Source: Myxococcaceae bacterium JPH2
GTDB taxonomy: Bacteria > Myxococcota > Myxococcia > Myxococcales > Myxococcaceae
Reading direction: 5' to 3'
Length of the DNA: 64,000 nucleotides
Assembly: GCA_016458225.1 (NCBI GenBank)
Contig: JAEMGR010000016.1
Location: 1 to 64,000, forward strand
In this document: in pieces, positions 37,424 to 52,100 of the stretch
How the letters are laid out: every line of letters starts with the position of its first letter
How positions within the stretch are numbered: position 1 is the first letter of the stretch
Translations under genes and position numbers: made by a program
Notes under the pieces: model-generated
The model's input: only the letters and a program-made list of their open reading frames with translations
Told to the model about the DNA's origin: nothing
The model's database searches: none

Positions 37424-38653
37424 ATGACGACGACGACAGCCCCCCAGCTCGTGAAGCCCGAGGCGGGAGCGCCCGCGGCCGAGGCTGCGGCGAAGCGCGG
37501 CAAGCGTGGGTTCTTCATCCTCGGCGGCGTGGTGGTGGCGGTGCTGGTGGCCTTGGGAGGCTTCAAGGTCATCACCGCGGGGCAGGAGACCACCGACGAC
37601 GCGCAGGTCGAGGCGGACGTGGTGCCCCTGGCCGCGCGCGTGTCCGGGCCGGTGGTGTCAGTCGAGGTGGTGGACAACGCGCTCGTGCACAAGGGGGACG
37701 TGCTGGTGCGCATTGATCCGCGGCCCTATGAGGCGCGGGTGAAGCAGGCCGAGGCGGAGCTGGAGTCGGCGCGCGCGCAGGCCGTGGCGGCGGATGCCCA
37801 GGCCACGGTGGCGGCGGCGGGCGCGAAGGGTGGCTTGTCCACGGCGCGCGCCCAGGTGTCGAGCAGCACGTCGGCGGTGAGCAGCGCGGAGGCGCAGGTG
37901 GCCTCGGCGCGCGCGGCCGTGGCTCGGACGGAGGCCCAGTCTCGCAAGGCGGCGCTGGACCTGGACCGGGCCCGTCAGCTGCACGCGCAGAACGTGGTGT
38001 CGCAGCAGGCGCTGGATGATGCGCAGACAGGGCAGGACACCGCGCTGGCCGCGCTGGAAGGGGCTCGGGCGCAGCTCGCGGTGGCCGAGGAGGGTCGCCG
38101 CGCCGCGGAGAGCAAGGTGGCCGAGGCGCGGGGCCAGCTCGACATGAGCTCGCCCATCGACGAGAAGATCGCCGCGGCCCAGGCCAGCGCGTCGCTGGCG
38201 CATGCGCGCGTGAAGGGCGCGGAGGCGGCGCTGGAGCAGGCGAGGCTCCAACTCGAGGACACCCGCATCGTGGCGCCCGCGGAGGGTCAGGCGTCCAAGC
38301 TGTCCGTGCACGTGGGCCAGTTGCTGTCGCCCAGTCAGGCTGTCGCGGAGCTGGTGCCCTCGCGCACGTACGTGGTGGCCAACTTCAAGGAGACCCAGGT
38401 GGGGCACATGGTGCCCGGGCAGCACGTCGAGGTGGTGCTGGACGCGTACTCAGGCGAGAAGCTGGAGGGCACGGTGGAGAGCCTGTCGGGCGGCACCGGC
38501 GCGCGCTTCTCGTTGCTGCCTCCAGACAATGCGTCGGGCAACTTCGTGAAGGTGGTGCAGCGCGTGCCGGTCCGCATCGCCTGGGTGAATGCGCCCCAGG
38601 GGCTGGCGCTGCGCGCGGGCCTGTCGGCCGAAGTGACGGTGCACACGAAGTAG
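37424..38653 (+). CDS. EmrA/HlyD-type membrane fusion protein
   Basis: A 409-residue periplasmic adaptor. One transmembrane anchor (GFFILGGVVVAVLVALGGF, about 28-46); split biotinyl-lipoyl strands TTDDAQVEADVVPLAARVSGPVVSVEVVDNALVHKGDVLVRIDPRPYE and DTRIVAPAEGQASKLSVHVGQLLSPSQ; a long Ala-rich coiled-coil hairpin between (about 105-275); and the beta-barrel end YVVANFKETQVGHMVPGQHVEV. It partners the EmrB-type antiporter 3 bp upstream. The coiled coil is long for EmrA and could reach an outer-membrane channel directly. Confidence 0.9.
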   Translation: MTTTTAPQLVKPEAGAPAAEAAAKRGKRGFFILGGVVVAVLVALGGFKVITAGQETTDDAQVEADVVPLAARVSGPVVSVEVVDNALVHKGDVLVRIDPRPYEARVKQAEAELESARAQAVAADAQATVAAAGAKGGLSTARAQVSSSTSAVSSAEAQVASARAAVARTEAQSRKAALDLDRARQLHAQNVVSQQALDDAQTGQDTALAALEGARAQLAVAEEGRRAAESKVAEARGQLDMSSPIDEKIAAAQASASLAHARVKGAEAALEQARLQLEDTRIVAPAEGQASKLSVHVGQLLSPSQAVAELVPSRTYVVANFKETQVGHMVPGQHVEVVLDAYSGEKLEGTVESLSGGTGARFSLLPPDNASGNFVKVVQRVPVRIAWVNAPQGLALRAGLSAEVTVHTK

Positions 38654-40201: not shown

Positions 40202-40221
40202 GCGATGACCCTAATCCCGGA

Positions 40222-40237
40222 TACCCCTTGAAGGGTA
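40222..40237. promoter_or_regulatory. TACCC-N6-GGGTA dyad in divergent promoter region
   Basis: TACCC (40222-40226) and GGGTA (40233-40237), extended inward by CTT/AAG with one bulge. It lies between the DUF5360 start (40201, minus) and the WGR gene start (40283, plus), a good place for an operator shared by both. Confidence 0.35.
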
Positions 40238-40257
40238 GGGTGGCGCATTTGTCACCT

Positions 40258-40282
40258 GGAGTGGCTATGGTCGCGCCACTCC
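40258..40282 (+). promoter_or_regulatory. 8-bp dyad abutting the first ATG of the WGR-MoxR-VWA-SWIM operon
   Basis: GGAGTGGC (40258-40265) and GCCACTCC (40275-40282) are exact reverse complements around TATGGTCGC, and the right arm touches the ATG at 40283. TATGGT (40266-40271) resembles a -10 element. The dyad could be an operator over the promoter. If transcribed, it would be a hairpin hiding GGAG and blocking the start codon. Confidence 0.5.
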
Positions 40283-43200
40283 ATGGCTCGCTACGAATTC
40301 ACCGAAGGCACTTCGCAGAAGTTCTGGGAAATCACCCTCCAGGGCGCGTCGTTCACCGTGCGGTTTGGGCGGCAGGGCACGCAAGGCCAGACGCAGGAGA
40401 AGTCATTCGCGTCCGAGGACAAGGCTCGCACCGAGCACGACAAGCTCGTCGCGGAGAAGGTGAAGAAGGGGTACTCGCTGGTGGCTGGCGCGCTGGCCGC
40501 CGCCGCGGTGCCTGTCCCGGTGGAGCCCGAGCCCGAGGCTCGCGTTGCCGCGGCTTCGAAGGCGAAGAAGGCCCAGGGGGCTGAAGTGGCCTCGGCCGCC
40601 AAGGAGTCCTCGCCCGCTGCGGTGGCCCCTCCCGCCGAGGACCGTGGGCCGGTCCAGAAGTGGACCCCGGAGGAACTCCCCACCGAGCGCGTGAAGGGCG
40701 TGTACTGGACGCCCGCGCTGCGCCACATGCTGGTGCCTCGCCCCGGTGGCTTGCGCGCGGTGGTGCGTCCGGTGCCGAGCGTCGAGGTGGCGTGGGCCGC
40801 CGTGCGCCGCTCCTTCCTGGCGCAGGACATCATGGCGGTGGAGAAGTTGAAGGAGGGCAGCTCCACCGACAAGCCTCGGCAGTGGCAGTGGCGCACGTCC
40901 TACGCCGCGGCCGAGCGCGCGATGGCGGAGCGCTTCGACTCGCCGACGCCCCGCGTGGGGACCGAGGCCGAGGACATCGCCCTGGTGCGCGACCTGTTCG
41001 TCCAGTACCGCTATCCCTCCAACTGGTTCGCGGAGTCCCAGCACGAGCGCGTGGCGGACTTCCTGGTGGCCACGGTGGGCCTGGAGCAGGCCCTCCTGCG
41101 CAGCGCTCGCGCGGTCGACGACGAGCTGCCCTACACGGGCGTGGGGCTCTTCGCTCGGTTCCGTGAGTTGATCAGCCTCGCGGACGAGGCCACCTACCGC
41201 TCCCTGCGGGACACCTGCTTGCCCGTCTTCGCGACGTGCGCCGCCGCGGTTCGCCAGAAGGACGATGGCGCGGCCAATGACCTCCTGAGCGCCGCTTCGT
41301 TCTTGTTCCCCTTGGGGCCCTGGGCGGGGGCGAAGGAAGAGGCCGCCCTGAAGGCCGCCCTGGATGCCGTGGGCGAGTTCGGGGACCTCGACGTCACGCA
41401 CGCCTCTGTCCTGGCGGCGGGAGGCCTGGCGTGCCTGGAGGCGTTCCGGCGGAAGAACCGCAAGGTGAGCCACGAGTTCTGGTCGTTCGATCAGTCGCAG
41501 CGCCTCTACCTGACCTCGCTGCTGGAGCTGGAAGGCAAGGCGGCGCTGGAGGCCCTCATCAAGCTCCAGGTGGGCGACCCGTGGGAGGACGATGGCCACT
41601 ACCAGGGCCTGTACTGCTTCGTCCTGGCGCACATCGACGATGACGCCGCGATTGAGGTCCTCATCAAGCATCTCAAGCGTGAGACGGAGGAGGCCCCCTG
41701 GGCGACCGCCTCGCTCCATGTCGCCGCGGCGGTGCAGCGCGCGCGGGTGAATCGGCTCCTGGAGGCGGCGGGGGACAAGCGCGCGAAGGCGGCGGCACTG
41801 TCCATCACCAACGGTTCCCCCGTGCCCCTGACGTTCCGCGTGCGAGACGTCCACGCCCCCGTGATTGGCTCCGGCGACGACGTGCATGCGGAAGGAGTCC
41901 ACGTGGACTCGTACGTAGGAACGGTGCCGAAAGAGGCGAAGCCCTATCAGCGGCGCTCCGTGTCGTTCCGCTTCACCACCGAGCCGGCCATCGTCTGGCG
42001 GGACGAGGAGGAGCGCCTGGGGTACCTGCCCTCGGAGGAGGACGGAGGCCATGAGCAGGAATGGGACGGCAAGCCGCTGAGCAAGCTCGACCGGGCCGAG
42101 ACCGAGGCCTACGTGGCCCACCTGGAGCGCTACCAGTTGGAGGTGCCGGACTACGGCGTCGGGCTGCTCTCGCGTGAACTCGTCCTGCGCCTGGTCCAGC
42201 TCCCGTATGGCTCGGCCTCCTACAGCTACAACCGGTTGGGGACGTGGATCGCCAAGTACGGGCTGGACATGCTCCCGTGGACGCTCGACGTGGCCGCGGC
42301 CGAGTTCAACAACGCGCTCCTACCTTTCGGGCACGTGGCGCTGGTGCCGTACATCGCCGCGTGGTTCGCGGGAAAGAAGGACAAGCCGCGGGCGCGGGCG
42401 TGGCTGATGCGCCATCCGCGCATCGCCGCCGCGGGCTGTCTGTCGTTGGCGCTGGATGGCTCGGGCGCCGAGCAGGAGGCCGCCACGCGGGTCCTGCGCT
42501 ACCTGGCATCCATGGAGCAGCGCGGGACCATCCTCGAGCTGGCGGCCCAGGGCGGGGCGAAGGATGTGGCGGCCGTCACGGCGCTGCTGGACGCGGATCC
42601 GCTCGCGGCGCCCAAGGTGAAGAAGCCGGAGCTGCCCGCCTATGCCTCGCCAGCGAAGCTGCCGGCGCTGACCACGCGTGATGGACGCCGCCTGTCCGCC
42701 GCGGAGGTGGAGACGCTGCTCGTGCAGTTGGCGTTCTCGGTCTCGGATGAGCCGCACCCGGGCGTGCTCCACGCGCGCGAGGCTCTCACCGAGGCGTCGC
42801 GTGCCGCCTTCGCCTGGGCGCTGTTCGAGGCCTGGGGCAAGGCCAAGTACGACGCCAAGCAGAGCTGGTGCCTGCAGGTGGTGGGCTTCCTGGGCGATGC
42901 GGAGTGCGCGCGCAAGCTGACGGCGCTGGCTCGGGAGTGGCCCGGCGAGAACGCGAGCAAGCGCGCGGAGGCGGCGCTGGACGCGCTCTACAATCAGGGC
43001 AGCGAGACGGCGCTGGTGCTCATCAACCTGCTGGCGGAGAAGTCCCGCTTCCCTGCCTTCAAGACCGCGGCGCGGGAGCGCATCGACCTGCTCGCGCGTC
43101 GGCGTGGGCTCACCGCGGACGAGCTGGCGGATCGCCTGGTGCCCACCTTCGGTCTGGATGACGCGGGCGGCACGGTGCTGGACTTCGGGCCGAGGAAGTT

Positions 43201-44032
43201 CTCGGTCGGCTTCGACGAGGCGCTGCGGCCGCTCGTGCGCAACGAGGCGGGCGAGTTGCTGAAGGACTTGCCCAAGCCGGCCAAGTCCGACGCCGCGGCG
43301 AAGGCGAAGGATGCCGCGGCGCGCTTCACGGGCCTGAAGAAGGACGTGCGGTCCGTGGCGAGCCTCCAGGTGAAGCGCCTGGAGCGGATGCTCATGTCGC
43401 AGCGGAGCGTGGCGGCGGCGGACTTCATCGCGTTCTTCGTGAAGCACCCGCTGGTGTTCCACCTCACGCGGCGCTTGCTCTGGGCGGTGTTGGACGGCGC
43501 TCGGCGCGTGCCCTTCCGGGTGGCCGAGGACGGCACCTTCGCCACGGTGAAGGACGATGCCTTCAAGCTGCCCGCGGACGCGCGCGTGGTGGTGGCGCAC
43601 CCTGTCCATATCGAGGCCTCGCAGCAGGCGGCCTGGGGACAGGTGTTCGCGGACTACGAACTCATCGTTCCGTTCCCGCAGCTGGGTCGTCCCGTCTTCG
43701 CGGCGCAGGCCACGGAGAAGGGCGCGGTGAGCCAGCGCTTCCAGGGCGTGAAGGTGCCGACCAAGGCCCTGCGCGGGCTGGAGTCGCGGCGCTGGTCGCG
43801 GGACATCAGCGATGGCGGTGGCATCTCGACGTACTACTGCTTCGTGGATCGGCCCGGCGCGCGGCCCGTCATGGCCTGGCTGCACTTCGAGCCGGGCTTC
43901 ATCGTGGGCATGGACGCGGAGGAGGCCACGCAGACGCTGGGCGAGCTGCGGCTGGATGGCTGCGCGTTCCAGGAACTGGACCCGGTGAGCTTCTCCGAGC
44001 TGATGTTCGACATCGAGCGGCTGAAGGCCTAG
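40283..44032 (+). CDS. WGR-domain/DUF4132 protein (YehI/MolR-like)
   Basis: A 1249-residue protein. Residues 1-75 are a WGR domain (YEFTEGTSQKFWEITLQGASFTVRFGRQGTQGQ...KSF), a fold also found in PARP proteins that senses DNA ends. An Ala/Pro/Lys-rich linker (about 70-135) leads to a long alpha-helical HEAT-like region. The C-terminal about 190 residues match DUF4132 (FADYELIVPFPQLGRP, RFQGVKVPTKALRGLESRRWSRD, YYCFVDRPGARPVMAWLHFEPGFIVGMDAEE). E. coli YehF/YehI (MolR) have this layout. It is the first gene of a five-gene operon; the next gene starts 10 bp later. Confidence 0.85.
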   Translation: MARYEFTEGTSQKFWEITLQGASFTVRFGRQGTQGQTQEKSFASEDKARTEHDKLVAEKVKKGYSLVAGALAAAAVPVPVEPEPEARVAAASKAKKAQGAEVASAAKESSPAAVAPPAEDRGPVQKWTPEELPTERVKGVYWTPALRHMLVPRPGGLRAVVRPVPSVEVAWAAVRRSFLAQDIMAVEKLKEGSSTDKPRQWQWRTSYAAAERAMAERFDSPTPRVGTEAEDIALVRDLFVQYRYPSNWFAESQHERVADFLVATVGLEQALLRSARAVDDELPYTGVGLFARFRELISLADEATYRSLRDTCLPVFATCAAAVRQKDDGAANDLLSAASFLFPLGPWAGAKEEAALKAALDAVGEFGDLDVTHASVLAAGGLACLEAFRRKNRKVSHEFWSFDQSQRLYLTSLLELEGKAALEALIKLQVGDPWEDDGHYQGLYCFVLAHIDDDAAIEVLIKHLKRETEEAPWATASLHVAAAVQRARVNRLLEAAGDKRAKAAALSITNGSPVPLTFRVRDVHAPVIGSGDDVHAEGVHVDSYVGTVPKEAKPYQRRSVSFRFTTEPAIVWRDEEERLGYLPSEEDGGHEQEWDGKPLSKLDRAETEAYVAHLERYQLEVPDYGVGLLSRELVLRLVQLPYGSASYSYNRLGTWIAKYGLDMLPWTLDVAAAEFNNALLPFGHVALVPYIAAWFAGKKDKPRARAWLMRHPRIAAAGCLSLALDGSGAEQEAATRVLRYLASMEQRGTILELAAQGGAKDVAAVTALLDADPLAAPKVKKPELPAYASPAKLPALTTRDGRRLSAAEVETLLVQLAFSVSDEPHPGVLHAREALTEASRAAFAWALFEAWGKAKYDAKQSWCLQVVGFLGDAECARKLTALAREWPGENASKRAEAALDALYNQGSETALVLINLLAEKSRFPAFKTAARERIDLLARRRGLTADELADRLVPTFGLDDAGGTVLDFGPRKFSVGFDEALRPLVRNEAGELLKDLPKPAKSDAAAKAKDAAARFTGLKKDVRSVASLQVKRLERMLMSQRSVAAADFIAFFVKHPLVFHLTRRLLWAVLDGARRVPFRVAEDGTFATVKDDAFKLPADARVVVAHPVHIEASQQAAWGQVFADYELIVPFPQLGRPVFAAQATEKGAVSQRFQGVKVPTKALRGLESRRWSRDISDGGGISTYYCFVDRPGARPVMAWLHFEPGFIVGMDAEEATQTLGELRLDGCAFQELDPVSFSELMFDIERLKA

Positions 44033-44042
44033 GGCACCCGGC

Positions 44043-45158
44043 ATGACGCGCGCGCGACGAAGCGAAACGGCGAAGGCTCCGGCGCTCCAGCGCCCTCCGG
44101 CCGAGGTCCTCCACGCGGAGGAGCTGGCGCGGTTGCGCGAAGCGGACACAGGGCCACGTCCTCCGGGCTGGCAGCTGTCGCTCCAGGCCGTGCGGGCCTT
44201 CATCCTGGGCGACGCGGCCCAGGGGCTGCGGCGCAAGCTGGTGTGTCCGGCGTCGCTCGTCGAGCGCTGCATGGTGACGCTCGCCACCAACCGGGGCCTC
44301 TTGTTGGTGGGCGAGCCGGGCACGGCCAAGTCCCTGCTGTCCGAGCTGCTGGCGGCGGCCGTGTCCGGCGTCTCCACCCTGACCATTCAAGGGGGGGCGG
44401 CCACCACGGAGGACCACATCCGGTACTCGTGGAACTACGCCTTGCTGGTCAACGAGGGCCCCTCGCCGCGCGCCTTGGTGCCGGGGCCCATGTACCTGGG
44501 CATGAAGCAGGGCCAGCTCGTGCGCTTCGAGGAGATCACCCGCTGCCCGCTGGAGGTGCAGGACGCGCTCCTGTCGCTGCTCTCCGAGCGGGTGCTGGCG
44601 GTGCCGGAGCTGGAGGGCCCCGAGGGCATGCTGTTTGCTCGCGAGGGCTTCAACATCATCGCCACGGCCAACACGCGGGACCGGGGCGTCAACGAGATGT
44701 CCGCCGCGCTCAAGCGGCGCTTCAACTTCGAGACGCTCTTTCCCATCCTGGACGCGGACGCGGAGCTTCAGCTCGTGAAGGAAGAGTCCGCGCGACTGCT
44801 CGCGCGCTCGGGTGTGCCGGTGACGCCGCCGGACGAAGTGCTCGAAGTTCTGGTGCGCACCTTCCGCGAGCTGCGCACGGGCGAGGTGAAGGACGGGCAG
44901 GCGGTGGAGAAGCTCTCCACGGTGCTGTCCACGGCGGAGGCCGTGTCGGTGGCGCACGCGGTGGGCGTGCGTGGCTGGTACCTGCGCGGTGATGGGGGCA
45001 CTCCGGCGGACGTGGTGGAGTGCCTGGCGGGCACGGCCGCGAAGGACAACGCGGAGGACCTGAAGAAGATCCGCCGCTATCTGGAGCAGCGCGTGGGCCA
45101 TCGGACGGGCGCGCACTGGAAGGCGCTCTACGAAGCGCGCTTCCTCCTGCCGGGATGA
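44043..45158 (+). CDS. MoxR-type AAA+ ATPase (YehL-like)
   Basis: A 371-residue AAA+ ATPase. Walker A is GEPGTAKS (90-97); the Walker B region reads QLVRFEEITR, with Glu163 in place of the usual first Asp but catalytic Glu164 kept; sensor 1 is IIATANTRDRG; the Arg-finger region is SAALKRRFNFETLFP. The insertion AATTEDHIRYSWNYALLVNEGPSPRALVPGPMYLG (119-153) contains a substrate-facing loop longer than in classical MoxR. MoxR ATPases work with VWA proteins as chaperone-like remodellers, and the VWA partner is two genes downstream. The stop overlaps the next start (ATGA). Confidence 0.9.
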   Translation: MTRARRSETAKAPALQRPPAEVLHAEELARLREADTGPRPPGWQLSLQAVRAFILGDAAQGLRRKLVCPASLVERCMVTLATNRGLLLVGEPGTAKSLLSELLAAAVSGVSTLTIQGGAATTEDHIRYSWNYALLVNEGPSPRALVPGPMYLGMKQGQLVRFEEITRCPLEVQDALLSLLSERVLAVPELEGPEGMLFAREGFNIIATANTRDRGVNEMSAALKRRFNFETLFPILDADAELQLVKEESARLLARSGVPVTPPDEVLEVLVRTFRELRTGEVKDGQAVEKLSTVLSTAEAVSVAHAVGVRGWYLRGDGGTPADVVECLAGTAAKDNAEDLKKIRRYLEQRVGHRTGAHWKALYEARFLLPG

Positions 45159-47491
45159 CGCTCCACGTCCTCGGTATCCGGCACCACAGTCCGGGCTGTG
45201 CCCGCGTGGTGCGGCAGGTCATCCGCGAAGTTCGACCCCGGCACGTCCTCATCGAGGGACCGTCGGACATGAACGTGCGGTGGGCAGAGCTGCGGCTCGG
45301 GCATCGGCTGCCCATCGCGGTGTTCACCTACCTGCACGTGGAGGGGCGCTCCCGCGCGAGCTGGAGTCCCTTCTGCGCGGGGTCTCCCGAGTGGGTGGCG
45401 CTGGAGACCGCGGAAGAGGTGGGGGCCGAGGCGCGCTTCATCGACTTGCCCGCGTGGCACGACGTCTTCACGGGCGTGGCCAATCGCTTCGCGGATCGCC
45501 GAGGCGAAGTGGGGCGCGAGCGGACTCGGATGTGGCTGGAGGCGCTGCTGCGCCACTACCGCCTCGATGACGAGGACGCGCTCTGGGATCATCTCTTCGA
45601 GCTGCCGTGTGATGCCCAGGTCCTGCGTGAGCGCCTGCGGCAATACTTCGCGCTGCTGCGGGGCGACGCGCCCGGAGGCCCGAGGGATGGTCCGCGCGAG
45701 GACTTCATGGCCGATGCGGTGGCCTGGGCCGAAGGCGACGTCGCGCGCCGCGCGGATGGGCGAGACGGCGTGGTGGTGGTGTGCGGCGGCTTCCATGCTC
45801 CGGCGCTGGAGCAGCTTGCGCGGGGACGGGTTCGGGACGCGTTCCCGGTGGCGCCGCCTCCGCCCGCGGGGGCACGGTGGGGGAGCTTCCTGGTGCCGTA
45901 TGACTCGAAGCAGATGGATGCCTTCGCGGGATACGACGCGGGGATGCCGTCGCCGGGGTTCTATGCGCTGGTGCACACGCATGGGCCGGAGGTGGCCGCC
46001 GAGGCCTTGCTGACGCGGGTGGCTCGGCGCCTGCGGGACAAGGGCCAGCCCGTGAGCACCGCGGACCTCATCGCGGCGCGAACGCATGCGGAGGGCCTGG
46101 CTCGCTTGCGAGGACATGCGGCGCTGGCTCGCACGGATGTGTTGGATGGGCTGTCCGCGGCGCTGGTGAAAGAGGGCCTGGAGGTTCCACCGCCGTGGGC
46201 GGGGCGCGGGCCGTTGCCGCCGCGCACGGAGCCCTTGTTCGTGGAGATGGTCGCGGCGCTGGCGGGGGACGAGCGCGGAGAGCTGGATGCGCGCACGCCC
46301 CATCCGCCGCTGGTGCGGGATGTCGCGGAGGTGCTGCGCAAGTGGGGCCTGGAGCCTGGGAGCTCGGGCCGCGCGGTGAAGCTCGTGCTCACCGAGTCCG
46401 AGGACCGGGAGAAGAGCCGCGTGCTGCATCGCCTGCGCGTGCTGGGCATCCCGGGCTTCGCTCGGAGGCACGGGCCGCGCACGCCCACGGGTGTGGTCCT
46501 GGAAGAGCGCTGGGAGGTGGGGACGAATCCGGAGCAGCTCTCGGCGCTGATCCAAGCCGGAGCGCACGGCGCGACGTTGGAGTCCGCGGCGCTGGTGTTG
46601 CTGGAGGAGCGGCTGCTCCAGGCCGAGGGACGGCTGGGGGCGCTCGCGGACGCGTTGCTTCAGGCGGTGTTCGTGGGGTTGGAGGGGCTCGCGCTGGAGG
46701 TGGTCGGGCGCGCGGCGGGGACGGTTGGCAACGAGTCCTCTCTGGGTGAGCTCGGGACTGCGCTGGGGACACTGCTCGATGTGTGGCACCACGGGGCCCT
46801 GATGGGGGCGGCTCGGGCGCCGCAACTCGAGCCTTTGTTGGCGCAGGCGGTGGATCGCGGGCTGTGGTTGCTGGAGGGGGCGGGGAGTACGGCGGAGGGG
46901 CAGGTGGTCGCGGCGGTGGTGGCGCTGCGAGACGTGTTGCGAGGCGGGCCGGATCGCGCGCGAGCCCTGGCTGTTCGGGCTGACGGAGTCTGGACGCGCA
47001 AGACGCTGGACGGGGCGGCGGCGCCCGAGGTGCGGGGCGCGTGTCTGGGCGCGCTGTGGAGCCTGGGCCGCTTCGATGACAGCACGGCGGAGGCCACGGC
47101 GGTGCGCGCGATGCGGGCCTTGGCTCAGCCGGCCGCGCTGGGAGATTTCCTGGCGGGGCTCGCGGCGGTGGCCCGCGCGCAGATGCTGCAATCCCAGGCA
47201 CTGCTGGGCTCCGTTCACGACGTTGTCAAGGCGATGACGGAGGCAGACTTCCTGACGGCACTGCCCGCGCTGCGGCTGGCCTTCTCGTTCTTCCCGCCCA
47301 TGGAGCGAGCGACGTTGGCTCGCACCGTCCTCCGGCTGGAGGGCGCGGACGAAGGCGCTGCCCACACCCTGCTGTCGCTGGACCTGGAGGCCGAGCAGGT
47401 GGCGCGTGGCGTGGCGCTCGAAACGCGCGCGCGCGAGCTGGCGGCGCGATGGGGACTCCGCGACGCCGCGGACTCGGAGGTGCGCGGATGA
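45155..47491 (+). CDS. DUF5682 protein (YehM-like)
   Basis: A 778-residue cytoplasmic protein starting inside the ATPase stop codon. The N-terminus MTLHVLGIRHHSPGCARVVRQVIREVRPRHVLIEGPSD is the signature of DUF5682, reminiscent of the TraB/GumN fold in which a short beta-strand with H/E residues precedes a helix. Other conserved bits are RFIDLPAWHD (about 96-105), VVVVCGGFHAPAL (about 207-219) and YALVHTHGPEV. The C-terminal half is helical and repetitive (Ala/Leu/Gly-rich). Function is unknown even in E. coli; the conserved His/Glu residues could form a metal or catalytic site. It is coupled on both sides by ATGA. Confidence 0.85.
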   Translation: MTLHVLGIRHHSPGCARVVRQVIREVRPRHVLIEGPSDMNVRWAELRLGHRLPIAVFTYLHVEGRSRASWSPFCAGSPEWVALETAEEVGAEARFIDLPAWHDVFTGVANRFADRRGEVGRERTRMWLEALLRHYRLDDEDALWDHLFELPCDAQVLRERLRQYFALLRGDAPGGPRDGPREDFMADAVAWAEGDVARRADGRDGVVVVCGGFHAPALEQLARGRVRDAFPVAPPPPAGARWGSFLVPYDSKQMDAFAGYDAGMPSPGFYALVHTHGPEVAAEALLTRVARRLRDKGQPVSTADLIAARTHAEGLARLRGHAALARTDVLDGLSAALVKEGLEVPPPWAGRGPLPPRTEPLFVEMVAALAGDERGELDARTPHPPLVRDVAEVLRKWGLEPGSSGRAVKLVLTESEDREKSRVLHRLRVLGIPGFARRHGPRTPTGVVLEERWEVGTNPEQLSALIQAGAHGATLESAALVLLEERLLQAEGRLGALADALLQAVFVGLEGLALEVVGRAAGTVGNESSLGELGTALGTLLDVWHHGALMGAARAPQLEPLLAQAVDRGLWLLEGAGSTAEGQVVAAVVALRDVLRGGPDRARALAVRADGVWTRKTLDGAAAPEVRGACLGALWSLGRFDDSTAEATAVRAMRALAQPAALGDFLAGLAAVARAQMLQSQALLGSVHDVVKAMTEADFLTALPALRLAFSFFPPMERATLARTVLRLEGADEGAAHTLLSLDLEAEQVARGVALETRARELAARWGLRDAADSEVRG

Positions 47492-48627
47492 CGGGCGGAC
47501 TTCCACCGATTGCTCGCTGGCGGCTCATCCTGGGGGATGCCGCGGAGGATGCGCTGGGCTCGGGCTTGTCGGACGCCGCGCGCTCCATGGACAGCGCGCT
47601 GGAGTGGCTCTACGGCCGCGATGAGTCGCTGGGCGAACGAGAGATTCACCGGAGCGACACCCGCGAGGGCGGCCGAGGTGACTCGACGCTGTCGGTGCCC
47701 GATTGGGTGAACGCCGTGCACCGCCTCTTCCCTCGGGAGACCATCGAGCGATTGGAGCGCGATGCGGTGGAGCGCTTCCACATCGACGAGATGGTGACGC
47801 ATCCCGAGGTCCTCCGGCGCGCTCAGCCGAGCACCTCGCTCCTGGCCGCGGTGCTGCGCACCCGTCACTTGCTCAAGCCCGAGGTCCTGGCGCTCGCTCG
47901 CGCGCTCGTGGCCGAGGTGGTCCGCGAGCTGATGGAGACGCTGCGCACCGAGGTGCGCCAGGCCTTCGGTGGCACGAGGGATCGGCGCCGTCCTGGGACG
48001 CGGAAGGTGGCCGCGCAGCTCGACTTCAAGCGCACGCTCGCGCGCAACTTGAAGAACTGGCGCCCCGACGAGCGCAAGCTGTACCTGGACCGTCCTCGGT
48101 TCTTCTCGCGCTCGCGCCGCATGCTGGAGCCCTGGCAGGTCATCCTGCTCGTGGATCAGAGCGGGAGCATGGTGACGTCAGTCATCCACTCGGCGGTGAC
48201 GGCGGCGTGCCTGTGGGGCTTGCCGGGCGTGCGCACGCACCTGGTGGCCTTTGACACGAGCGTGGTGGACCTGACGCGAGACGTGGTGGACCCCGTGGAG
48301 TTGCTCATGAACGTGCAGCTCGGCGGAGGCACGGACATCCAGCAGGCAGTGGAGTACGCGCAGGAGCTGGTGGATGCGCCGCGCCGGGCCATCGTCGTGC
48401 TCATCTCCGACTTCTACGAGGGGACCAGCCCCGAGTGGCTGGTGCGACGGGTGCGCGCGCTGGTGGGGCAGGGGACGAAGGTGCTGGGCCTCGCGGCGCT
48501 CGATGCCGAGGCCGAGCCGGACTATGACCGGGCGCTCGCGGCGCGGTTGGTGGATGCGGGCGCCGAGGTGGCGGCGATGACGCCTGGGCAGCTCGTGGGC
48601 TGGCTGGCCGAGAAGATGGGGCGCTGA
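47488..48627 (+). CDS. VWA-domain protein (YehP-like), MoxR partner
   Basis: A 379-residue protein started within the preceding stop (ATGA, GGAGG upstream). Residues about 1-210 are helical and basic (VAAQLDFKRTLARNLKNWRPDERKLYLDRPRFFSRSRR). Residues about 215-379 are a von Willebrand A domain with a complete MIDAS: DQSGS (Asp223, Ser225, Ser227), Thr in QLGGGTDIQQAV and Asp in VLISDFYEG. It should bind Mg2+ and a protein ligand under control of the MoxR ATPase. The short TGATG overlap with the next gene implies fixed stoichiometry. Confidence 0.9.
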   Translation: MTGGLPPIARWRLILGDAAEDALGSGLSDAARSMDSALEWLYGRDESLGEREIHRSDTREGGRGDSTLSVPDWVNAVHRLFPRETIERLERDAVERFHIDEMVTHPEVLRRAQPSTSLLAAVLRTRHLLKPEVLALARALVAEVVRELMETLRTEVRQAFGGTRDRRRPGTRKVAAQLDFKRTLARNLKNWRPDERKLYLDRPRFFSRSRRMLEPWQVILLVDQSGSMVTSVIHSAVTAACLWGLPGVRTHLVAFDTSVVDLTRDVVDPVELLMNVQLGGGTDIQQAVEYAQELVDAPRRAIVVLISDFYEGTSPEWLVRRVRALVGQGTKVLGLAALDAEAEPDYDRALAARLVDAGAEVAAMTPGQLVGWLAEKMGR

Positions 48628-50585
48628 TGCGAAGCGACCTGTTGACGCTGACGGCCGAGTCGCTCGCCGCGCTGGCGAACGTGGGCGTGGTCAAGCGAGC
48701 CCAGAAGGAACTCCAGGAGGGCAATGGGCCCCAGGTCCACGAGGAGCCGGATGGCACCGTGGTGGGGACATTCACCGAGGGCGTCGTCACCCGCTTGCCG
48801 CCCGGCAAGGCGCTGAAGGATGCCCCCTGTGGCTGCAACGCGAAGCTCGTGTGCCGTCATCGCGTGGCGCTCGTCCTGGCCTATGCGCGTGTCGCGCAAG
48901 AGGCTGCTGCCGCTGTCACTCCCGAGACGCGACAGGAAGTCTCACCGGGCACGCTGGAGGATGCCGCGCTGGAGGCGGTGCTCGGCGCTCGGGTGATGAG
49001 TGACGCACGGAGTGCCCGGCGACGGGGCGTGCTGTGCGAAGTCATGCGAGCCGGGTCGGCGAGCGACGTGCCCACGGTGCGGTTGCCCTCGGCGACTGTT
49101 CGCTTCCTGGCTCACGCGGAGCTGGCGCATGCGCGCTGCGACTGCGTGACGGGGGGTGGCTGTGTGCACGTGGCCTTGGCGTGCTGGGCGTTCCGTGAGG
49201 CGGACCGTCGAGATGCCTCGCGCGACTCGCTGCTCCTCGAGCTCAAGGACGGAGAGGCGTCCACGGCCGTGGATGCCGGCTGGGCTCGGGCGCTGGAGCC
49301 CGCGGTGATGTTGCTCTGTGAGGGCGTGGACCAATCCCGCGCGTCGCTCGGGCAGGCCTTCGCGGTGGCGCGCGCGGAGCTGTCCGGCGCGACGTGGCTG
49401 GCGCTCGGGCTGGAGGACATCGAGCGGGCGCTGGGGTGGCACCGGGCGCGCTCGGCACGCTACCGCGCCGCGGAGCTGCGCTTCCTGCTCGCCGAGCTCT
49501 TTGCTCGGGTGCGTGCCGCGTCGCCGCCCGGAGGCGAGCTGCCGGCGCGCGCGGTGGTGGGACAGGGCGAGGCCCTGGAGACTCGGTTGGATCGCGTGCG
49601 CTGGGTGTCGCTGGGCGCGCGCGTGGACTCGGATGGGCGGCGGCGCACGCTGGAGGTGTTCCTGGCGGATCCGGACATGGCCTCGGTCTTCGCGATGGAG
49701 CACACCTGGGACACTCCGGAGGACGAGCCTCTGCCCTCGGGACCGGAGCTGGGGCGGCGTCGCGTCGCGGGCGCCACATGGGACGTGCTCGCGCGTGGAC
49801 AGGTGGTGACGCAAGCCGCGGTGCGCCGCGCGAACCGCGAGGTGCGACTGGAGGGCAGCCGCACCGTGGCCACGTCCGTGACGCTCCAGACCGGGGACTT
49901 TGATTCGCTGCCTTCACCCGTGCGCGTGGAGGACGTGCGCGCGCTGCGAGAGGCGTGGCTCGCGCGACCGCCTCGGATGCTCCGTCCCAAGGCCCGCGCC
50001 GAGGATGTGCACGCCGTGCGCGTGGGCGCCGTCCACGAGGTGGCCTTCGACTCGGCCCGTCAGGAGCTGCGCGCCACGCTGGAGGACGTCCACGGACAGC
50101 CGTTCACGCTGGTGCGCGGCTTTCGGGCGGCGGCGCCGCGGGCCTTGGAGATCCTCGCCGCGACGCTGGAGGCGGACCACGGCCCCGTGCGGTGGGTGGC
50201 GGGGCCGATGCGATGGGGCGGCTCGGGCCTGGAGCTGGAGCCCACGCTGCTCACGGCGGACCGCGTGGTGGTGCCGGACCTGGACGCGGGCGAGGCCGTG
50301 CGCCCGTTGCGTGGAGGCCCCTCGCGCGGGGACGCGGCGGATCCGCTGCGTGCGCGCATCGACGCGCTGGCGGGCCTGCTGGAGGAGGCCTTGCACCGAG
50401 GGCTGCGCCACCTGGAAGGGGACTATCCCGAGCGTGCCTGCGCGCTGGCCGTGACGCTGGAGGACGCGGGCCTGAGGGACCTCGGGCTGCGGCTGCGTCG
50501 TCTCGGGGAGTCCATTGTCGCGGGGCGTGAGGCCGCATGGGACTGGGCCCACGCGGCGATTCGGTTGGCGCTCCTGGAGGACTGA
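48627..50585 (+). CDS. Double SWIM zinc-finger protein (YehQ-like)
   Basis: A 652-residue protein, last gene of the operon. It carries two SWIM-type zinc motifs of form CxCx5CxH: C68-G-C70...C76-R-H78 and C171-D-C173...C179-V-H181. SWIM fingers bind DNA or proteins and occur in SWI2/SNF2 ATPases and MuDR transposases. The remainder (about 200-652) has no recognised enzymatic motif and mixes helices with beta-hairpins. E. coli YehQ has one annotated SWIM finger, so the second is noteworthy. A convergent RCC1 gene ends 10 bp downstream. Confidence 0.85.
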   Translation: MRSDLLTLTAESLAALANVGVVKRAQKELQEGNGPQVHEEPDGTVVGTFTEGVVTRLPPGKALKDAPCGCNAKLVCRHRVALVLAYARVAQEAAAAVTPETRQEVSPGTLEDAALEAVLGARVMSDARSARRRGVLCEVMRAGSASDVPTVRLPSATVRFLAHAELAHARCDCVTGGGCVHVALACWAFREADRRDASRDSLLLELKDGEASTAVDAGWARALEPAVMLLCEGVDQSRASLGQAFAVARAELSGATWLALGLEDIERALGWHRARSARYRAAELRFLLAELFARVRAASPPGGELPARAVVGQGEALETRLDRVRWVSLGARVDSDGRRRTLEVFLADPDMASVFAMEHTWDTPEDEPLPSGPELGRRRVAGATWDVLARGQVVTQAAVRRANREVRLEGSRTVATSVTLQTGDFDSLPSPVRVEDVRALREAWLARPPRMLRPKARAEDVHAVRVGAVHEVAFDSARQELRATLEDVHGQPFTLVRGFRAAAPRALEILAATLEADHGPVRWVAGPMRWGGSGLELEPTLLTADRVVVPDLDAGEAVRPLRGGPSRGDAADPLRARIDALAGLLEEALHRGLRHLEGDYPERACALAVTLEDAGLRDLGLRLRRLGESIVAGREAAWDWAHAAIRLALLED

Positions 50586-50595
50586 GCGCGGACGC

Positions 50596-52044
50596 TCAGC
50601 GGCTCGGCGTGGGCGTCGCGCTCGTCAGCAGGTGGGCGGGCACGGGCGCGGCGGTGGCCACGTTCCAACTGTCTGGCCGGTTGGCCAGGTCACCCGTGGG
50701 GAGCACGCCGTTGCCGAGGATGCCTGTCTTGTTCCGGCCCCAGGAGAACACGCGGCCGTCGGTGGCCACCGCGTAGCAATAGAAGGACTCGCTCGTGGTG
50801 GAGATGCTCCGGAAGGTGACGCCCGGGGCGATCTGCACGGGACGGAAGACGAGCTTCTCGAACAGCCCCCAGTCCCATCGATAGGGCGTGGGGTAGGTGG
50901 CGAAGTCGAGCATGGCGCCGTTGCCCACCTCGCCCATGGCCGAGTCTCCCCATCCCCACAGCGTCCCGTCGTCCAGGATGACGTGCGTGGTGTGGCCGGA
51001 GGCGGCGACCTGGACGACGCGATGCGCGCCGAACTCGGGGAAGGAGAGCAGCCGAGGCGTGGCCACCGGGTTCCATCCGCCCGTGGGGCTGCCCAGGCCC
51101 AGGTACGTGCCGCGAACGCCCCAGCCCCACAGGCGTCCTTGGTCGTCCAACGCGTAGGCGAACGCGTCTCCACCCGGGGCGAGCTGCACGATGCGCGAGG
51201 TGATCGCCACCTGTCGCGGCTGGGCGTACTCGGTGGGCCGGCCCGTGCCGAGGTTCTCCTGCGCCACGGCGCCGCCGCCCCAGGCCCAGGCGTGTCCCTG
51301 CTCATCCAGCGCGAAGGCGATGAAGTCGTTGGTCGCGATGTCGACGATGCGAGTGCCCGTGGGCAGGGGCACCTTGAACGGCCGCGTCATGTTGCGGCCC
51401 ACCGTGTCCCCGTCGCCCGCGATGCCGGTCGAGTTGCCGACCGCGGTGCCGTTATGTCCCCAGACCCACACCGAGCCGTCCTGCTTCAGCGCCAGGTTGA
51501 ACAGGAGTCCCGAGCGCACCGAGACGACGCCGTTGAAGGGCTGACCGCTGGCGTCCTGCGGGATGAGGTACGGGATGCCGTTGTTGCCGGGCGCGGGAGA
51601 GTTGGGCAGGTCGTTCGTGGTGCCGTCGCCCCGCTGGCCGAAGCGGTTGTCTCCGAATGTCCACACGCGCCCGAGCACATCCAGCGCGATGCTCTGATAG
51701 CCACCGCCCGCCACGCCCTGGAAGCGCAGAGAGGGGTCCACCGCGATGGGCGCCGCCGGCACCTGGTTGTAGGCCACCGACGTTCCGAACCCGAGCTGCC
51801 CCAGCCGGTTCGAGCCGATGCCGAGCACCTTGCCGTCCACGAGATAGAACGCCTGGTACTCGGCGGTGTGGATGCTGACGGACACCGAGCCCGTGCCCCC
51901 ATCGGACGGCTCGCTCCCGCCATCCGCGGTCAGCGCACCCTGGGGCGCCACACCCGACGAATCCTGCAGCGAGGGGACCGCGACGTCCGAGCAGCCCAAC
52001 CCGGCGCACAGCAGCGCCAGACTCCACATGCGTGAACTTGGCAT
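50596..52044 (-). CDS. RCC1-repeat (beta-propeller) lipoprotein
   Basis: A 482-residue lipoprotein from ATG 52044 (GAGGA upstream), lipobox LALLCAGLGC. At least six RCC1-type blades of about 55 residues follow: GIGSNRLGQLGFGT, VWTFGDNRFGQRGDGT, VWVWGHNGTAVGN, AWAWGGGAVAQENLGTG, LWGWGVRGTYLGLGS, LWGWGDSAMGEVGNG and VFSWGRNKTGILGNG, each preceded by FALDxxG or similar. This should close into a seven-bladed propeller on the outer membrane or surface, probably a binding protein. An A/T-rich promoter region and a dyad lie upstream (52060-52120). Confidence 0.85.
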   Translation of the reverse strand: MPSSRMWSLALLCAGLGCSDVAVPSLQDSSGVAPQGALTADGGSEPSDGGTGSVSVSIHTAEYQAFYLVDGKVLGIGSNRLGQLGFGTSVAYNQVPAAPIAVDPSLRFQGVAGGGYQSIALDVLGRVWTFGDNRFGQRGDGTTNDLPNSPAPGNNGIPYLIPQDASGQPFNGVVSVRSGLLFNLALKQDGSVWVWGHNGTAVGNSTGIAGDGDTVGRNMTRPFKVPLPTGTRIVDIATNDFIAFALDEQGHAWAWGGGAVAQENLGTGRPTEYAQPRQVAITSRIVQLAPGGDAFAYALDDQGRLWGWGVRGTYLGLGSPTGGWNPVATPRLLSFPEFGAHRVVQVAASGHTTHVILDDGTLWGWGDSAMGEVGNGAMLDFATYPTPYRWDWGLFEKLVFRPVQIAPGVTFRSISTTSESFYCYAVATDGRVFSWGRNKTGILGNGVLPTGDLANRPDSWNVATAAPVPAHLLTSATPTPSR

Positions 52045-52100
52045 GGGCACATCCTCGCTCGCGGGCGTGTGTGATTAAAGCAGCAAAACGAGAAAAATCT

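What the first reader, a model, noticed from the sequence alone, without database searches (positions are those of the whole stretch)
40283..50585. Tightly coupled WGR-MoxR-DUF5682-VWA-SWIM operon
Five large genes with junctions of 10 bp, ATGA, ATGA and TGATG encode a WGR/DUF4132 protein (a fold known to sense DNA ends), a MoxR AAA+ ATPase, a DUF5682 protein, a VWA protein with full MIDAS and a double-SWIM zinc protein. The set parallels E. coli yehI/L/M/P/Q, whose function is not settled; MoxR-VWA pairs are known ATP-driven remodelling modules and occur in predicted conflict systems. The fixed stoichiometry and the DNA/zinc-binding ends suggest a DNA- or nucleoprotein-linked remodelling machine, possibly defence or stress related.
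Basis: partly seen in the sequence, partly recalled or inferred. Interest (0 to 1): 0.8.

Follow-up and report, generated by a model that had tools for sequence, protein, structure and literature searches.

The report
MoxR-VWA machine with hidden TIKI hydrolase
This myxobacterial gene cluster is a relative of a common but unexplained E. coli gene set, and one of its proteins of unknown function looks like a TIKI-family enzyme coupled to an ATP-driven protein-remodelling motor, which gives experimenters a specific activity to test.

Summary
The five-gene operon is real as described. It is a myxobacterial member of the E. coli molR/yehI-yehLMPQ group (MoxR 65.5% identical to YehL). E. coli's WGR-bearing counterpart is MolR, not YehI.

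New: DUF5682, without known function, has a predicted N-terminal TIKI-superfamily domain (ChaN, TraB, Ere, RRSP). hhalign to ChaN: E=5.5e-6 over 185 columns (16 unrelated pairs >=0.016); His10, Glu34, Arg181, His214 in 41 of 41; ChaN and HopBA1 stand above unrelated structures. Foldseek alone gave nothing at E<=0.001.

MoxR, DUF5682 and VWA occur together in 39 of 39 typed loci, in four architectures with different accessory genes; each forms a split in all three core trees. WGR-DUF4132 is the loosest part.

Best reading: an ATP-driven remodelling/hydrolase machine with exchangeable targeting parts. Defence is not supported: none of 18 neighbours tested gave a convincing PADLOC hit; the operon is near-core in E. 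coli (5155 of 5426). A DNA-damage link rests on MolR and Deinococcus relatives.

The parts
40283..44032 (+). WGR-DUF4132 protein (1249 aa), MolR-type
   Evidence: Pfam WGR and DUF4132; 38% identity over 640 aa to the long MolR piece of E. coli, 32% over 602 aa to YehI
40295..40477 (+). WGR domain (residues 5-65)
   Evidence: Pfam 1.3e-16; solved homologue 2ra8 4.1e-10
43250..43795 (+). DUF4132 domain (residues 990-1171)
   Evidence: Pfam 4.9e-46
44043..45158 (+). MoxR AAA+ ATPase, YehL-type (371 aa)
   Evidence: Pfam AAA_5; 65.5% identity to E. coli YehL
44310..44333 (+). Walker A GEPGTAKS (residues 90-97)
44523..44534 (+). Walker B as R-F-E-E (residues 161-164); R161, E163 and E164 in 41 of 41 sequences
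45155..47491 (+). DUF5682 protein (778 aa), YehM-type
   Evidence: Pfam 1.6e-102
45155..45832 (+). Predicted TIKI-superfamily domain (about residues 1-226)
   Evidence: hhalign to ChaN 5.5e-6 and TraB 1.3e-4; model pLDDT 88, pTM 0.88; ChaN Z 8.7, HopBA1 8.5
45182..45184 (+). Predicted active-site His10
   Evidence: 41 of 41; aligned with the ChaN first-strand His
45254..45256 (+). Predicted active-site Glu34
   Evidence: 41 of 41; equivalence by strand order and motif, one column off in the ChaN alignment
45695..45697 (+). Predicted active-site Arg181 (RExxM motif)
   Evidence: 41 of 41; aligned with TraB RN..MA
45794..45796 (+). Predicted active-site His214 (GxxH motif)
   Evidence: 41 of 41; aligned with TraB GAGH and ChaN GxGH
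46412..47449 (+). C-terminal helical-repeat (HEAT-like) half of DUF5682, about residues 420-765
   Evidence: model and importin/CAND1/symplekin-like matches, Z about 8-9, within the range of common helical arrangements
47488..48627 (+). CoxE-type VWA protein, YehP-type (379 aa)
   Evidence: Pfam VWA_CoxE 2.8e-58; 59.2% identity to YehP
48154..48168 (+). MIDAS DxSxS (residues 223-227); T282 at 48331-48333, D308 at 48409-48411
48627..50585 (+). Double-SWIM-like zinc protein, YehQ-type (652 aa)
   Evidence: 32.9% identity to YehQ; Pfam SWIM below cut-off in this member
48828..48860 (+). First CxC-CxH motif (residues 68-78)
49137..49169 (+). Second CxC-CxH motif (residues 171-181)

Best explanation
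The operon encodes an ATP-driven protein-remodelling machine whose working end is a TIKI-superfamily domain hidden in DUF5682. Shown: genes, junctions, domains, a constant core MoxR-DUF5682-VWA, co-inheritance with four accessory sets. Supported by profile and fold comparison: the DUF5682 N-terminus has the TIKI fold with a conserved His-Glu-Arg-His set, followed by a HEAT-like helical half. Inferred: the MoxR hexamer, docked through the MIDAS of the CoxE-type VWA protein, remodels either the DUF5682 enzyme itself (metal or cofactor loading, as recalled for CoxD/CoxE and NorQ/NorD) or a substrate handed to it for cleavage. Inferred: accessory proteins (SWIM zinc modules; WGR-DUF4132, DUF5691 or HEAT solenoids) choose the target; in this Yeh type the WGR domain may direct it to damaged DNA or its bound proteins.
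For: 39 of 39 typed loci carry all three core genes (architectures), with DUF5682 and VWA in one frame in L049 and L057. A search by MoxR alone in 40 relatives gave 9 strong places (E at most about 1e-79; the next is 1.9e-7); all 9 lie beside DUF5682 places. Twelve of twelve type splits occur in the core trees. TIKI: hhalign of the 41-sequence N-domain gave ChaN E=5.5e-6 (probability 86, 185 columns), TraB 1.3e-4 (probability 54) and Ere 0.0055; accepted superfamily pairs in the same test gave 1.4e-8 (TraB-ChaN), 4.2e-5 (ChaN-Ere) and 0.092 (TraB-Ere); 16 unrelated pairs gave >=0.016, the 8 with DUF5682 >=0.22. H10, E34, R181 and H214 are in 41 of 41. VIA Z for the N-domain model: ChaN 8.7, HopBA1 8.5, then EreC 7.0, Ere-like 6.6-6.9, RRSP 5.7-6.8. 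PMC6254334 (passages) names ChaN, HopBA1, Bcr135 and RRSP as TIKI proteins, with catalytic His/Glu residues and a conserved basic residue. VWA_CoxE 2.8e-58. A Lon-like protease lies beside the type A locus L038.
Against: Foldseek alone gave no PDB match at E<=0.001 for either model. In the VIA list only the Tetrahymena chain, ChaN and HopBA1 stand above unrelated folds; the Ere and RRSP rows tie with Ffh (7.0), IspH (6.8) and histidine phosphatases (about 6). The best match, a Tetrahymena complex IV subunit, is of a family I did not establish. A profile search of DUF5682 against PDB sequences found no TIKI protein. Glu34 is one column off the ChaN Glu in the ChaN alignment, and the TraB alignment does not reach His10 or Glu34. 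The Glu of the ExH motif is absent, as in the TraB consensus. ChaN binds haem (title of 2g5g), so the fold does not prove hydrolysis. Core-tree distances agree only loosely between types (rank correlation 0.30-0.58). The 5 type C slices have no SWIM profile hit. In plasmid records MoxR matched 44, VWA 40 and DUF5682 28; most of these were not opened. No interaction, ATPase or hydrolase result exists here.
Confidence: 0.5

Rival explanations
1. DUF5682 is the client, not the tool: MoxR and the CoxE-type VWA mature or metallate DUF5682, which then acts alone as a small-molecule or haem/metal-binding enzyme, as ChaN or Ere do.
For: VWA_CoxE is the best VWA family; ChaN is the best profile match; MoxR proteins are described as maturing and activating protein complexes (PMC3893208, passages).
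Against: 35 of 39 typed loci also carry an accessory protein of a defined type, and DUF5682 and VWA share one frame in L049 and L057, which suggests a standing complex rather than a one-time maturase.
Confidence: 0.3
2. A DNA-damage-linked nucleoprotein remodelling or repair machine, with WGR as DNA-end sensor.
For: WGR in the first gene. MolR is listed as LexA-regulated (PMC11039860 and PMC8533742, passages). A one-mismatch SOS-like site ends 9 bp before molR in L053. Deinococcus DUF4132 and WGR genes rise on DdrO depletion.
Against: One-mismatch sites are common in L053 (9 found, 5.6 expected; 26 of 200 shuffles reach 9). 0 of 10 other promoters (12 scans of -300..+20) had a lineage damage box, the window included. 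No WGR profile hit in the type A and B slices, and none in 3 of 13 Yeh-type slices.
Confidence: 0.3
3. An anti-phage or other conflict system of the MoxR-VWA ternary kind.
For: Patchy in Myxococcota (61 of 193 genomes have a DUF5682 match). Found in 28 of 72,556 plasmid records, in Iodobacter beside a type I restriction system. MoxR-vWA-VMAP systems are described as conflict systems (PMC10910872, passages).
Against: PADLOC gave only WGR_XIII 2.3e-5 on the WGR stretch and REase_II 0.0084 on MoxR. 8 window neighbours gave one weak hit (LmuB 4.6e-4) and 10 neighbours from seven Yeh-type loci gave none at 1e-5. Near-core in E. coli, 5155 of 5426. No relative confirmed among viral contigs with two peptide patterns. 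PMC7159879 has no occurrence of SWIM, WGR, DUF5682 or YehL in its main text (term search).
Confidence: 0.1

Closest known systems
E. coli molR/yehI-yehK-yehL-yehM-yehP-yehQ
   Same: All five protein kinds, same order of the last four; identities 65.5% (YehL), 37.7% (YehM), 59.2% (YehP), 32.9% (YehQ), 38% over 640 aa (MolR piece)
   Different: E. coli has two DUF4132 genes (MolR with WGR, YehI without) plus yehK; the window has one WGR-DUF4132 gene. No function found for either.
Plasmid copies in Iodobacter (L054) and Sinorhizobium (L055)
   Same: All five kinds, MoxR 64.5% and 72.7% identical
   Different: Sinorhizobium order is MoxR-DUF5682-DUF4132-VWA-SWIM; Iodobacter has a second DUF4132 gene and a split SWIM gene
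RavA-ViaA (E. coli MoxR-VWA)
   Same: MoxR ATPase plus VWA protein in one operon (PMC3893208, passages)
   Different: Different MoxR subfamily; no TIKI, SWIM or WGR partner recalled; the window VWA matches ViaA only weakly (E 0.018)
CoxD/CoxE, NorQ/NorD, CbbQ/CbbO activases (recalled)
   Same: MoxR plus a VWA protein (CoxE-type by Pfam here)
   Different: Their clients are metalloenzymes or Rubisco; here the constant partner is DUF5682
TIKI superfamily: ChaN, TraB/GumN, Ere, RRSP
   Same: Predicted fold and His-Glu-Arg-His set of the DUF5682 N-domain
   Different: DUF5682 adds a helical-repeat half and is tied to a MoxR-VWA motor; lacks the Glu of the ExH motif
MoxR-vWA-VMAP ternary conflict systems
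   Same: MoxR and VWA core
   Different: No VMAP or effector-associated domain among the Pfam hits; bpMoxR model below cut-off (19.7 against 27 bits)

Membership tests
YehL-type MoxR-DUF5682-VWA-SWIM operon | MoxR most similar to YehL | tested here: met
   65.5% identity over 362 aa
YehL-type MoxR-DUF5682-VWA-SWIM operon | DUF5682, CoxE-type VWA with MIDAS and SWIM-like protein adjacent | tested here: met
   SWIM only by motif and homologues
YehL-type MoxR-DUF5682-VWA-SWIM operon | Groups with Yeh-type loci in all core trees | tested here: met
   Yeh split of 15 sequences, support 1.0, 1.0, 0.998
TIKI superfamily (DUF5682 N-domain) | Parallel beta-sheet TIKI fold | tested here: met
   On a predicted model only: ChaN Z 8.7 (141 residues, 3.7 A), HopBA1 8.5; Ere and RRSP rows tie with unrelated folds; hhalign ChaN 5.5e-6. 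Foldseek alone found none at E<=0.001
TIKI superfamily (DUF5682 N-domain) | First-strand His, second-strand Glu, basic residue, last His | tested here: met
   41 of 41 each. His10 and His214 align with ChaN, Arg181 and His214 with TraB; Glu34 is one column off in the ChaN alignment and is matched by strand order
TIKI superfamily (DUF5682 N-domain) | Second Glu (ExH) of the RRSP-type 2His/2Glu set | tested here: not met
   Ile8 in the window (Val in many relatives) two residues before His10; the TraB consensus also lacks it, so the superfamily claim stands but RRSP-type catalysis is not claimed
TIKI superfamily (DUF5682 N-domain) | Hydrolase activity | not testable with these tools
   needs purified protein
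MoxR-vWA ternary conflict system | VMAP, beta-propeller or effector-associated third component | tested here: not met
   none among the five proteins by Pfam or PADLOC
Anti-phage defence system | Position in defence islands | tested here: not met
   18 neighbours tested, no convincing hit (10 of the 42 genes listed were given); one plasmid locus lies beside restriction genes
LexA/SOS-regulated operon | Lineage damage box at the promoter | tested here: inconclusive
   E. coli molR one-mismatch site only; none in window -300..+20 with three patterns; patterns are recalled

The most novel reading that the evidence does not exclude
A previously unrecognised class of ATP-dependent protease or hydrolase machine: a YehL-type MoxR ring with an acidic Walker B variant (RxEE) drives a TIKI-fold peptidase (DUF5682) through a MIDAS adaptor, with exchangeable zinc and solenoid targeting subunits; the Yeh/MolR version, near-core in E. 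coli, processes proteins at damaged DNA.
Probability: 0.15. Interest if true: 0.9.

Novelty: new member of a known kind. Interest (0 to 1): 0.6.

Why it matters
YehL is one of seven named MoxR subfamilies (PMC3893208, passages), and I found no stated role for its operon in the searches listed in the report. A TIKI-superfamily assignment for DUF5682, with four predicted active-site residues, makes the question testable in a laboratory E. coli strain: mutate four residues, look for substrate, metal and ATP dependence. It would also tie an enzyme superfamily shared with animals (Tiki, TRABD) to a bacterial AAA+ motor. In the held library 'DUF5682' occurs in 0 papers, and the listings of the combined searches showed none that joins this operon or DUF5682 with a TIKI protein; the papers in those listings were mostly not opened.

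Tried and rejected
Defence system: PADLOC on the five proteins (WGR_XIII 2.3e-5 on the WGR stretch, REase_II 0.0084 on MoxR), on 8 window neighbours (only LmuB 4.6e-4, on the protein at 37424-38653) and on 10 neighbours from seven Yeh-type loci (none at 1e-5; 10 of the 42 genes listed) gave nothing convincing. A viral-contig scan with two peptide patterns confirmed no relative; one unverified phage record matched DUF5682 at 25.6%.

SOS regulation as a general trait: 0 of 10 promoters outside molR (12 scans; for Nonomuraea the open-frame start was used, not a called start); the recalled myxobacterial pattern gave 2 window matches against 2.0 expected, not at this promoter. An exact SOS box was not found in L053.

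Relatedness of the accessory proteins: hhalign of all 36 family pairs linked only SWIM proteins (swimA-swimB 2.4e-9; SWIM-swimA 0.0021, probability 13); DUF5691, WGR-DUF4132 and the type C protein stayed unrelated at this sensitivity.

TIKI by PDB sequence search found only coiled-coil and helical noise; by Foldseek alone nothing at E<=0.001. The VIA list for the whole protein was mostly helical repeats, with the Tetrahymena chain on residues 1-226 at the top, so the N-domain was modelled alone. PMT, another TIKI structure named in the paper, was not among the 50 rows shown. RRSP rows 6a7h and 6a8j are taken as RRSP from their residue numbers; 5w6l is titled so. The genome-contig scan with a single protein found one locus.

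Dropped or partial rows: of the 70 match rows, 28 places were fetched as long loci for typing (20, 8 among the 12 regions). The 11 plasmid loci were picked from the hit lists (44 records; 40 records). L053, L056 and L074 were read but not typed. Four loci (L049, L057, L071, L073) fit no type; they are in the trees but not in a tested split. Profiles: ChaN 20 of the 30 loci; TraB 5 of the 6 loci and 21 of the 26 new ones; Ere 18 of the 20 loci. Type labels came from accessory genes only, with profiles built from some of the same loci.


Full report
The observation. The five ORFs and their junctions are as described. Pfam assigns WGR plus DUF4132, AAA_5, DUF5682 and VWA_CoxE to the first four. 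The fifth has two CxC-CxH motifs, invariant in six aligned sequences, but is below the Pfam SWIM cut-off itself. The window belongs to a 9-Mb genome close to the myxobacterium Citreicoccus inhibens, whose DUF5682 protein is 93% identical.

What it is. tblastn and annotated records show the same set in E. coli (L053, a record labelled plasmid that carries the yeh region), on an Iodobacter plasmid and on a Sinorhizobium plasmid in a different order. Identities to E. coli are 65.5% (MoxR/YehL), 59.2% (VWA/YehP), 37.7% (DUF5682/YehM) and 32.9% (SWIM/YehQ). For the first gene, E. coli MolR is the closer counterpart: its two pieces in L053 lie just before yehI and match the window at 32% over 129 residues (WGR part) and 38% over 640, against 32% over 602 for YehI, whose alignment has no WGR part. 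Another E. coli strain has an intact WGR-DUF4132 gene there and a further DUF4132 gene before it.

A constant core and exchangeable partners. All 39 hold MoxR, DUF5682 and VWA; in L049 and L057 DUF5682 and VWA share one frame, in L073 the order differs, and in L055 DUF4132 lies between. The 28 were found by DUF5682 and the 11 by MoxR or VWA. A search by MoxR alone in 40 relatives gave 9 strong places, all 9 beside a DUF5682 place. Four architectures appear. Yeh type, 13 loci: SWIM-like protein after VWA, WGR-DUF4132 in the slice in 10 of 13. Type A, 11 loci: SWIM protein, and DUF5691 in 10 of them, before MoxR, including Deinococcus, Hymenobacter, Methylosinus and Rhizobium plasmids; the Fusobacterium locus shows only the SWIM part. 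Type B, 6 loci: a SWIM-HEAT protein after VWA. Type C, 5 loci: a protein without Pfam hit in the 2 tested before MoxR, no SWIM profile hit. Four loci fit none. In trees of MoxR, DUF5682 and VWA each type forms a split in all three, 12 of 12, support 0.66 to 1.0; distance correlations are 0.86-0.94 within and 0.30-0.58 between types. The core and its partners therefore seem to descend together.

DUF5682 has a predicted TIKI-superfamily N-domain. The aligned motifs G-x-R-H-H-x-P, VLIEGP, RExxM and VVCGGxH resembled TraB, ChaN and erythromycin esterase. I built profiles of these families from the same phylum. With 41 DUF5682 N-domains, hhalign gives ChaN E=5.5e-6 (probability 86, 185 columns), TraB 1.3e-4 (probability 54) and Ere 0.0055, while accepted relatives among themselves gave 1.4e-8, 4.2e-5 and 0.092, and 16 unrelated pairs gave 0.016 or worse. 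A first, shallower test gave TraB 8.4e-4 and Ere 0.014, with TraB-Ere itself at 0.0034 and 8 controls at 0.026 or worse. His10, Glu34, Arg181 and His214 are in 41 of 41. In the ChaN alignment His10 and His214 fall on the ChaN His residues; Glu34 is one column off. The N-domain model (pLDDT 88, pTM 0.88) aligns with ChaN (Z 8.7, 141 residues, 3.7 A) and HopBA1 (8.5, 136 residues, 3.1 A). EreC (7.0), Ere-like proteins (6.6-6.9) and RRSP (5.7-6.8) follow but tie with Ffh (7.0) and IspH (6.8), which are unrelated. The top match is a Tetrahymena complex IV subunit (10.7) whose family I did not establish. Foldseek by itself found nothing at E<=0.001. The TIKI list and the catalytic His/Glu and basic residues come from passages of PMC6254334. 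The Glu of the ExH motif is missing, as in the TraB consensus. I take the fold as likely and activity as open. The C-terminal half is a helical repeat.

Motor parts. Walker A is kept. Walker B reads R-x-E-E in all 41 MoxR sequences, with Glu in place of the usual Asp ('usual' is recalled). MIDAS residues are kept in 40 or 41 of 41. The ATPase and the metal-dependent docking site look functional.

How it most likely works. A MoxR ring, docked through the VWA protein, remodels a target or the enzyme itself, with DUF5682 as the chemical end and scaffold. SWIM proteins and solenoids select targets. In the Yeh type a WGR protein may point it to DNA ends. Steps after the fold assignment are inference.

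Damage and defence. MolR is listed among LexA-regulated genes (PMC11039860 and PMC8533742, passages; also PMC3978071 and PMC4576408, passages), and Deinococcus WGR and DUF4132 genes rise when DdrO is depleted. A one-mismatch site ends 9 bp before molR in L053, but such sites are near chance in number there, and 0 of 10 other promoters, the window included, gave a box. Defence finds little: no convincing PADLOC fit, near-core presence in E. coli (5155 of 5426 genomes hold at least 80% of yehLMPQ), no confirmed viral relative. Plasmid carriage and patchiness in Myxococcota (61 of 193) suggest mobility, which does not by itself mean defence.

Literature. Searches for Yeh names, DUF5682, DUF4132 with WGR, combined terms, MoxR-vWA conflict systems, TIKI names and molR with LexA listed no paper that I could see assigning this operon a function or DUF5682 a fold. 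I opened passages of PMC8533742, PMC3893208, PMC10910872, PMC6254334, PMC11039860, PMC3978071 and PMC4576408, and ran a term search in PMC7159879; the other listed papers, some of which mention a yeh gene once, were not opened. Subscription journals are largely outside the library, so this is not proof of absence.

Noticed in passing
window 44523-44534: Walker B of the DUF5682-associated MoxR is R-x-E-E in 41 of 41 sequences, with Glu in the place of the usual Asp (recalled).
   Followed up: partly
window 40216-40285: The region just before the WGR start holds an inverted repeat (GGAGTGGC...GCCACTCC) and, by eye, is more alike in the sister genome than the divergent DUF5360 gene beside it.
   Followed up: no
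L056: An E. coli conjugative plasmid carries yehI to mlrA between IS26 copies, beside CTX-M-15: it looks like a chromosomal segment on a resistance plasmid. Described as annotated only.
   Followed up: no
L054 1158-18916: Iodobacter plasmid: the operon lies near transposase genes and just before a type I restriction cluster, with a second DUF4132 gene and a split SWIM gene.
   Followed up: no
L038 6943-10262: A Lon-like AAA protease and an unknown 263-aa protein follow the VWA gene of a type A locus.
   Followed up: no
L049 8236-12804 and L057 9807-13901: DUF5682 and VWA lie in one open frame.
   Followed up: partly
L048 3532-4569: A protein with two WGR stretches and a SUKH domain upstream of a type C core; L049 has a short WGR-DUF4132 protein upstream.
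   Followed up: no
L084 14811-16205, minus strand: A second CoxE-type VWA protein lies close to a Yeh-type operon.
   Followed up: no
PDB 8b6h_DQ / 7w5z_E: A Tetrahymena mitochondrial complex IV subunit is the best structural match of the DUF5682 N-domain; its family was not checked.
   Followed up: no
L113: E. coli strain Sanji has three DUF4132 genes in a row, the last being yehI.
   Followed up: no
window 50596-52050, minus strand: An RCC1-repeat protein converges on the operon end.
   Followed up: no
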